Shown here: positions 2,246-8,970 of the stretch, piece by piece
How the letters are laid out: each line of letters starts with the position of its first letter
How positions within the stretch are numbered: the first letter of the stretch is position 1
Notes under the pieces: model-generated
The model's input: the letters and a program-made list of their open reading frames with translations, nothing else
Database searches by the model: none
Told to the model about the DNA's origin: nothing
NCBI GenBank assembly: GCA_947570135.1
Contig: CANOTP010000003.1
Span: 1-64,000, forward strand
DNA from: an uncultured Candidatus Melainabacteria bacterium
GTDB taxonomy: Bacteria; Cyanobacteriota; Vampirovibrionia; Gastranaerophilales; Gastranaerophilaceae
Direction of reading: 5' to 3'
DNA length: 64,000 bases
Position numbers and translations under genes: made by a program

Positions 2246-2316
2246 ATTTTAATAATCTCATTAAAAATTTGAAATTGCAATAAAGAAATGGTATAATTAA
2301 GTAAAAAAAGCAGCAC

Positions 2317-2399
2317 AGATATTACTAAATTTGATATAATACAGAAGGAGAAAACAGATGAAAAAGCAGAGTATAGTTAGGATTGCGGGGGGGGTAACT
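2317..2399 (+). repeat. 83-bp pilin leader block, copy 1, with G8 tract
   Basis: This block is 75/83 identical to 8184-8266 and has the same length. It contains TGATATAAT (extended -10 box, TATAAT at 2335-2340), the ribosome site AGAAGGAG, the ATG at 2358 and ten leader codons, and ends just after a run of exactly eight G (2387-2394). Identity stops immediately after the G run. It looks like a duplicated expression cassette placed ahead of different pilin bodies. Confidence 0.85.
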
Positions 2400-3136
2400 T
2401 TTACGGTTTAGAATCTGACTGTCGCGGAAGAGGGTTAGCCATTGGTAGCAAAGTACCCCGTGCGGTGAGCACAGGTTTTACACTCGCAGAGGTTTTAATT
2501 ACCCTTGGTATTATCGGAGTAGTTGCGGCACTTACTATCCCCGGTTTGATGACCGCTTATAAGGCTCATCGTTATCGTTCTCAGTTTTTGAAATCCTATT
2601 CAATTGTTCAGCAGGCGTTTCGTCAAATGGAAGCCGATGATGTTTCGACGGACCCGAATTCGTACGGATTGGATTCGTATTACAAGACTTTTTCTCATTA
2701 TGTAAAATTTCTTGCAGATTGTGGTACTAATGCAAAGGGTATGAAGTCTTATCCTCAGTGTTATACAAAAACAAGTCCGAAAGCATACAAGGCTTATGAC
2801 GGGAAAACAAAGGCTTATACGGAAGTTTTTGATGATGGTCAGCTTGTTTTAATTGACGGTACGAATTTGTTGTTTGAAAACCCTTCAAACACAAGGATTT
2901 TTGTCCATGTTGATTTGAACGGGTTTTTGAACCCTCCAAACCGCTGGGGATATGATTTGTTTACTTTTCATTTTATAGACGGTGAATTACGTACAATGGG
3001 AAGTCGTGGTACGGCATACAGTGCTGAAACTTATTGTAATCCTAAATCAACATCTAATTATAACGGTATAGGTTGTGCTCATTATGCTAAAAATAATACC
3101 GATTATTTCAAAAAGATTATAAAATCACTTAAATAA
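2358..3136 (+). CDS. Prepilin-like protein, out of frame at a G8 tract
   Basis: Type IV pilin/pseudopilin-like protein with a prepilin peptidase site G^FTLAEV followed by the hydrophobic helix LITLGIIGVVAALTIPG, then about 190 residues of extracellular-type sequence with Cys pairs. The start with a good ribosome site is ATG 2358. As given, that frame ends after 17 codons (TAG 2409-2411). Adding one G to the run at 2387-2394 (or removing two) joins it in frame to the pilin body, giving a 36-codon leader ending ..VSTG before FTLAEV. The only start within the pilin frame is GTG 2465, which has no ribosome site. Phase variation, slippage or a homopolymer consensus error are the candidate explanations. 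Confidence 0.75.
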
Positions 3137-8183: not shown

Positions 8184-8266
8184 AGATATTACTGAATTCG
8201 ATATAATACAGAAGGAGAAAAAGTATGAAAAAACCGAGTATAGCTAGGATTGCGGGGGGGGTAACT
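8184..8266 (+). repeat. 83-bp pilin leader block, copy 2, with G8 tract
   Basis: This block is 75/83 identical to 2317-2399 with no gaps: TATAAT at 8202-8207, AGAAGGAG, ATG 8225 and eight G at 8254-8261. Even the out-of-frame leader peptide has the same length (17 codons, stop TAG 8276-8278). Confidence 0.85.
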
Positions 8267-8970
8267 CTTTTTGCTTAGCGCGGAGCGCGTTTACTCTTGC
8301 AGAAGTATTAATAACCCTCGGAATTATCGGGGGTGTGGCGGCGATGACTATCCCGAATTTGATAGCCAAAAACCAAAAAAGACTTGTTGAAACCCGTTTA
8401 AAAAGTACGTATTCTATTTTATCTAACGCAGTAAGGTTATCCGAAGAAGAAAACGGTTCAGGATTTAGTCCTGATTTTGGTTCAGGTTGGAATAAAGAAA
8501 AATCCAAGCGAATTTTTGAACAATATTTTCGTCCTTATTTAAAAATTAATTTTCAATATTCTGATGCCGAGTGCGTAAAGTTAAGTGAAAGTTATTCATC
8601 ATCAGCCACTTCTCAAAAATATACCGACAGTAACGGAGCTTGTTATGCTTTAATGAACGGTGTTTCTATAATCTTTTTTGCAGGTAACAATTTTGATAGC
8701 AATAATAAAATGATTGTCAGAGCAGTAATAAATCCAACCAAAAAGAGAAAAGTTGAAGGAAAAGATGTGTTTTCTTTAGTTTATGTCAATGGAGAAAACG
8801 GTTATTATTTGGGAACGTATGATTTAGTATCGGATAAATCCACATTGGTAAAGTATTGTGATAATGAATCTTCAAGAGTCGGCGGAGGCTGGACCCGTGC
8901 AGGGTTTTGTACCGAGTTAATTAAGCGCAGCGGTTGGATAATTCCTCCGAATTATCCTATTAAATTTTAA
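8225..8970 (+). CDS. Prepilin-like protein, out of frame at a G8 tract (second copy)
   Basis: Type IV pilin-like protein: after the G8 run the pilin frame reads SAFTLAEVLITLGIIGG then VAAMTIPNLIAKNQKR and about 195 further residues with several Cys. ATG 8225 has a good ribosome site but is one base out of frame with the body. In the pilin frame a TAG stands just before the G run, and no ATG/GTG/TTG occurs before GTG 8335, which is inside the transmembrane helix. So the gene cannot make a full prepilin unless the run is nine (or six) G. It overlaps the convergent galM gene by 11 bp. Confidence 0.75.

What the first reader, a model, noticed from the sequence alone, without database searches (positions are those of the whole stretch)
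2317..2411. Prepilin gene switched off by one base at a G8 run: probable phase-variable surface protein
Seen: ATG 2358 with a strong ribosome site leads to a 17-codon peptide ending at TAG 2409. With one more G in the run 2387-2394 the same ATG reads straight into the G^FTLAEV prepilin body. Runs of eight G in an AT-rich genome are rare and hypermutable. Known: poly-G tracts switch surface genes on and off in Campylobacter, Helicobacter and others. Inference: this is a contingency locus for a pilin-like surface protein; a consensus error in a homopolymer is the main rival.
Basis: partly seen in the sequence, partly recalled or inferred. Interest (0 to 1): 0.78.

Follow-up and report, generated by a model that had tools for sequence, protein, structure and literature searches.

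The report
Default-off homopolymer switch on pilin genes
The gut bacterium's pilin-like gene at this spot, and dozens of sister genes across its genome and its relatives, carry a run of G's that puts the gene one base out of frame, so each pilin looks switched off by default and one slip away from being made; this would be an unusually large on/off repertoire of one surface protein family.

Summary
Observation confirmed: ATG 2358, G8 at 2387-2394, a 17-codon peptide ending at TAG 2409, and an intact prepilin body one base out of frame. It is not a single-locus oddity. The host is a Gastranaerophilales-type bacterium (1.9 Mb, 34% GC, 122 prepilin-motif places). Of 45 runs of seven or more G, 37 sit in the same leader architecture (SD-ATG-about 10 codons-Gn-spacer-prepilin), including a second copy at 8225-8970. 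The architecture recurs in 68 of 286 genomes of the order, up to 73 loci per genome. In all 13 genomes with at least 5 scored loci the commonest tract length is out of frame: in-frame in 3/149 loci of modal length and 13/39 of other lengths. Bodies are intact and under purifying selection (dN/dS 0-0.28). The G-run lies on the leading strand (38:1), and poly-C versions lie on the opposite strand. Best reading: a default-OFF, slippage-switched prepilin repertoire like bifidobacterial pilus G-tracts. Against free hypermutability: run length is nearly fixed in some species (G10 in 44 of 45 loci), 15 orthologue pairs share it, and MutS and MutL are present. Recoding at the run remains the main rival; only raw reads or proteomics can separate them.

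The parts
2269..2297 (+). promoter-like site (TTGAAA, 17 nt, TATAAT, 11 of 12 matches)
   Evidence: consensus scan only; a second TATAAT lies at 2335-2340 by eye
2347..2350 (+). Shine-Dalgarno core GGAG, 7 nt before ATG 2358
2358..2411 (+). leader ORF in the out-of-frame (G8) state, 17 codons, stop TAG 2409-2411
2387..2394 (+). G8 tract on the leading strand; offset to the body is 2 (one base short of in-frame)
2395..2476 (+). 82-nt leader spacer, open in the body frame; carries an insert-like segment shared with the loci at contig 4:139.4 kb and contig 5:53.3 kb
2477..3136 (+). prepilin body (FTLAEVLITLGIIGVVAALTIP...), intact to TAA
   Evidence: TIGR02532 over cut-off; PF07963 24.2 bits in the six-frame search, 18.4 bits when scanned as a protein (cut-off 21.2)
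8225..8278 (+). second copy: leader ORF, 17 codons, stop TAG 8276-8278
8254..8261 (+). second copy: G8 tract, same offset 2
8290..8970 (+). second copy: prepilin body, intact; DUF6613 domain over cut-off, prepilin motif TIGR02532 just over cut-off

Best explanation
Each gene is a type IV prepilin-like surface or filament protein whose long cleavable leader contains a homopolymeric G (or C) tract. At the commonest length the ribosome starting at the SD-ATG leaves the tract out of frame and stops within a few codons, so no prepilin is made. Gain or loss of one base by replication slippage joins leader and body and switches the gene on. With tens of such genes per genome, a population would carry rare cells expressing different single or few pilins from a default-OFF repertoire. 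Shown here: the anatomy, the frames, the OFF bias, intactness and purifying selection on the bodies, length variation between loci, and the leading-strand orientation. Inferred: that slippage occurs in living populations, that it switches expression, and that the proteins reach a filament or the surface.
For: Same architecture at 37 of 45 runs of G>=7 in the genome and in 68 of 286 genomes of the order. The body frame between tract and motif is open in nearly every copy. The OFF copies of the typical type have no start with an SD in the body frame. Frames: modal length is out of frame in 13 of 13 genomes; in-frame 3/149 modal and 13/39 non-modal loci; non-modal loci keep the genus leader-plus-spacer frame in 24 of 39, as expected when only the tract changed. 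Bodies are conserved: dN/dS 0-0.28 in orthologue pairs in which both copies are OFF. Interrupted tracts go with truncated bodies, 3/6 against 0/22 for pure G8 (p=0.006, small numbers). The DNA-level orientation rule (G-run on leading strand 38:1; poly-C leaders 6/6 on the opposite strand) points to replication rather than RNA. In E. coli and Buchnera, RNA polymerase insertions were not found at G or C runs (PMC5574713). Working precedent: B. breve pili with out-of-frame G10/G11 tracts (PMC9187656).
Against: Tract length is very uniform in some genomes (G10 in 44 of 45 loci of G111; among all G/C runs of 7 or more in 216 kb there are 52 of length 10, one of 11, none of 7-9) and is identical in all 15 clean orthologue pairs, which is not what fast free slippage predicts unless the consensus hides variants. 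MutS and MutL are present. Three interrupted-tract copies have intact bodies although they should be locked OFF. Compensated frames (12) exceed unrelated frames (3) among non-modal loci, hinting that a particular offset is selected. No read-level data were available.
Confidence: 0.6

Rival explanations
1. Recoding at a fixed-length run: the DNA stays at the conserved out-of-frame length and a set fraction of prepilin is made by ribosomal frameshifting (or transcriptional slippage) at the G or C run, with the stop just after the run releasing the other ribosomes.
For: Length nearly invariant within some genomes and between orthologues; offset conserved within each genus (offset 2 in 73 of 83 loci of genus g7) and partly restored by compensating indels; stops lie 4-12 nt after the run in most loci; OFF bodies are under purifying selection.
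Against: The offset differs between lineages: +1 base needed in the window genome, g7 and g45; -1 (or +2) in g10, g13, G034 and Zag_111, so no single frameshift direction fits. The same logic occurs with poly-C leaders, a different codon and tRNA. The leading-strand rule has no reason in a translational model. About a fifth of loci have other lengths, a third of them directly in frame. RNA polymerase insertions were reported absent at G/C runs in two bacteria (PMC5574713).
Confidence: 0.27
2. Silent cassettes: the out-of-frame copies are sequence donors that recombine into one or a few in-frame expression loci, as pilS donates to pilE in Neisseria.
For: Many related copies per genome, few in frame; leaders repeated closely enough to break the assembly at shared stretches of about 55 bases.
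Against: Copies keep their own SD and start codon, unlike pilS; bodies are diverse, encode full proteins, and many orthologues are retained between species at ordinary divergence; no sign here of a dominant acceptor locus.
Confidence: 0.07
3. Assembly or consensus error in homopolymers makes intact genes look frame-shifted.
For: Metagenome assemblies; N-filled runs in G213 show some length errors.
Against: The same offset in dozens of loci, in independent assemblies and genera, in both directions, with poly-C as well.
Confidence: 0.03

Closest known systems
Bifidobacterium breve sortase-dependent pilus G-tract switch (bbr_0113, bbr_1889; PMC9187656)
   Same: Gut commensal; pilus gene split at a G10/G11 tract into a short upstream ORF and an out-of-frame main ORF lacking its own translation start; default sequence out of frame; slippage shown by deep sequencing there, with apparent enrichment in mice.
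   Different: Sortase pili in one or two clusters per genome there; here type IV prepilin-like genes with the tract inside the leader, up to 73 loci, G or C runs, strand-restricted; slippage not measured here.
Campylobacter jejuni poly-G/C contingency loci (29 loci of 7 or more repeats in NCTC11168; PMC4965091)
   Same: Genome-wide set of G/C tracts of about 8-12 in an AT-rich genome, frame set by length.
   Different: There unrelated surface-modification genes; here almost all tracts sit in one protein family, lengths are far more uniform, and modal length is OFF throughout.
Neisseria pilE/pilS and other pilin variation systems (from general knowledge)
   Same: Variation of type IV pilins from a repertoire.
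   Different: Gene conversion there; here each copy has its own SD, start and tract.
Programmed transcriptional slippage or ribosomal frameshifting genes (review PMC5009743, listed, not read)
   Same: Two overlapping frames joined at a homopolymer with a nearby stop.
   Different: Known slippage cases use mostly A/T runs (general knowledge and PMC5574713); direction of shift differs between lineages here.

Membership tests
Poly-G/C contingency (phase-variable) loci | homopolymer long enough to slip, within the 5' coding part, far above chance | tested here: met
Poly-G/C contingency (phase-variable) loci | length decides whether the gene is in frame, and both states occur among loci | tested here: met
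   (16 of 189 loci in frame)
Poly-G/C contingency (phase-variable) loci | length varies within a population or between close strains at the same locus | tested here: inconclusive
   no reads available; 15 clean orthologue pairs show no change, different loci of one genome do differ
Poly-G/C contingency (phase-variable) loci | reversible change of expression | not testable with these tools
   needs culture, reporter or proteomics
Type IV prepilin-like proteins | GFxxxE N-terminal cleavage/methylation motif with hydrophobic helix | tested here: met
   TIGR02532 over cut-off for both window copies; PF07963 over cut-off for 2468, under it
Type IV prepilin-like proteins | processing by a prepilin peptidase and assembly into a filament | not tested
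   not searched
Programmed ribosomal frameshift genes | one conserved shift direction at one slippery site across relatives | tested here: not met
   needed shift is +1 base in some genera and -1 in others; G and C runs both used
Transcriptional-slippage genes | long A or T run | tested here: not met
   runs are G or C; heterogeneous transcripts could not be tested
Neisseria-type silent pilin cassettes | copies lack their own translation start | tested here: not met
   copies have SD and ATG

The most novel reading that the evidence does not exclude
A replication-strand-specific homopolymer system: runs of a species-specific set length, always with G on the leading strand whichever way the gene is read, keep tens of prepilin genes exactly one base out of frame, implying directed or strand-biased slippage (or a dedicated recoding factor) that releases single pilins from a default-OFF repertoire.
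Probability: 0.25. Interest if true: 0.9.

Novelty: new variant of a known kind. Interest (0 to 1): 0.77.

Why it matters
Non-photosynthetic gut relatives of Cyanobacteria have scarcely been studied at the cell surface. The paper library held none that combine Gastranaerophilales with phase variation. A family of up to 73 pilin genes per genome, each held one base out of frame, would be a very large homopolymer-switched set devoted to one protein family, plausibly serving attachment, phage escape or host-immune variation. It is directly testable from existing stool read sets. The strict leading-strand placement of the G-run, which holds for poly-C genes read the other way, raises an open question about how replication direction shapes such tracts.

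Tried and rejected
Consensus error: rejected (same offset in many loci and assemblies). Internal start in the body frame: none with an SD in the typical G8 copies; the window copy has only GTG 2465 without an SD. Free random slippage: rejected for genus g7 by the uniform G10. SD-sequestering hairpin between AGGAG and the conserved AGCTCCT after the run: noticed, but the element also encodes Leu-Ser-Ser in the ON frame and is absent from many copies, and was not pursued. Searches of viral contigs for strain-level copies of the leaders found nothing. Forward and reverse counts are not comparable (forward counts each register of a tract) and were not used for strand bias. The strand test in the window genome assumes the skew switch on contig 2 lies near 60 kb (between 40 and 110 kb by skew).

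Full report
Observation. The feature is as described. An SD (GGAG 2347-2350) and ATG 2358 lead through G8 (2387-2394) to TAG 2409. The prepilin motif starts at 2477, offset 2 from the ATG, and the body is open to 3136. G8 is expected 0.11 times in the window by shuffling and occurs twice. The second G8 at 8254-8261 has the same anatomy and the same offset.

Genome-wide family. The genome (1.90 Mb, 99.9% complete) has 122 places matching the prepilin motif PF07963. Of 45 distinct runs of seven or more G, 37 lie in the same leader architecture, with 27 G8, 7 G9, 2 G7 and 1 G11 (read; a few are contig ends in the repeat). Related loci come from Candidatus Gastranaerophilales, Melainabacteria and similarly labelled metagenome assemblies. 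Across the order, 68 of 286 genomes (13 of 50 genera) have G7 or more just upstream of a prepilin motif; the richest have 73 (G111), 41 (G213) and 30 (G101) loci. Leaders differ in sequence between genera but keep the order SD, ATG, about 7-12 codons, run, 10-38 nt, motif.

Frames. In the window genome 27 of 38 scored leaders have offset 2, and two are truly in frame with G9. In 18 other genome sets 15 of 175 scored loci are in frame. Over 13 genomes with at least five loci, the modal length is out of frame in every one; in-frame loci are 3 of 149 at modal length and 13 of 39 at other lengths. Loci within a genome are not independent, so the per-locus p-value against one third overstates the case; at genome or genus level the evidence is weaker. 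Non-modal loci mostly keep the genus frame of leader plus spacer (24), some are compensated (12), few neither (3), which says that the run changes length against an otherwise fixed frame and also hints at selection on the offset.

Function retained. Bodies are intact in 45 of 45 G111 loci. Orthologues of G111 and G213, both out of frame, show dN/dS of 0-0.28. In the window genome three of six interrupted runs go with truncated bodies, none of 22 pure G8 (Fisher p=0.006).

Stability. Against fast switching, G111 has G10 at 44 of 45 loci, and 216 kb of it contain 52 G/C runs of length 10, one of 11 and none of 7-9. Eighteen reciprocal pairs with G213 were found; leaving out three with gap-filled or dissimilar leaders, all 15 keep G10. 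MutL and MutS are encoded in all five genomes tested. In B. breve a G10 pilus tract was likewise much less mixed in culture than a G11 tract (PMC9187656), so uniform G10 does not exclude switching.

Strand rule. GC skew at third positions shows that the + strand is the leading strand over the sampled pieces of the window genome except contig 2 near 20-40 kb (reversed) and contig 10 (weak). Coding is about equal on both strands, yet poly-G leaders are 38 leading to 1 lagging, while prepilins with ordinary short leaders are 18 to 42 (Fisher 2e-12). In G111 the runs follow the sign of the skew in every piece. Prepilins with poly-C leaders (three in G111 pieces; L211, L212, L220) lie on the opposite strand from the poly-G genes of the same contig, so that the G-run is again on the same DNA strand (6 of 6, two of them orthologous). 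This is hard to explain by translation and favours a replication-level role or filter.

Interpretation. The best-supported reading is a default-OFF, slippage-switched prepilin repertoire, working like the B. breve pilus tracts and Campylobacter contingency loci. Membership in the class of contingency loci is only partly tested, since population variation could not be measured. Recoding at the run is the chief rival; it explains uniform length but not the opposite offsets between genera, the poly-C versions, or the strand rule. The closest body relative of the window gene in another species (L166, 70% identity) has an in-frame leader without a G-run, so the switch module is not tied to one body lineage.

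Noticed in passing
own genome, all contigs: Prepilins with ordinary short leaders are mostly on the lagging strand (42 of 60), poly-G ones on the leading strand; the two classes are strand-partitioned and the reason is unknown.
   Followed up: partly
L310, L312, L315, L211, L212, L220: Prepilin genes with C10 (C11) leaders, read from the opposite strand, also out of frame where checked; some have a second in-frame ATG just before the motif.
   Followed up: partly
L309:54, L319:6422, L337:5944, L331:6635 (minus-strand coordinates of the locus): G10 runs outside recognised prepilin leaders, again on the same strand as the neighbouring poly-G runs; one pair is orthologous and looks like a C10 near the start of another gene.
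   Followed up: no
window 2395-2476; contig 4:139.4 kb; contig 5:53.3 kb of the own genome: A shared segment of about 60 nt inserted in frame in the leader spacer; other leaders carry other palindrome-rich inserts, so the leader seems to tolerate insertions.
   Followed up: no
own genome contig ends C1, C2, C3, C5, C15: Assembly contigs break inside the leader repeat (shared stretch of about 55 bases), two ends with the same leader but G8 and G9.
   Followed up: partly
leader loci of several genera: Conserved AGCTCC just after the run, complementary to the SD and encoding Ser-Ser in the ON frame.
   Followed up: no
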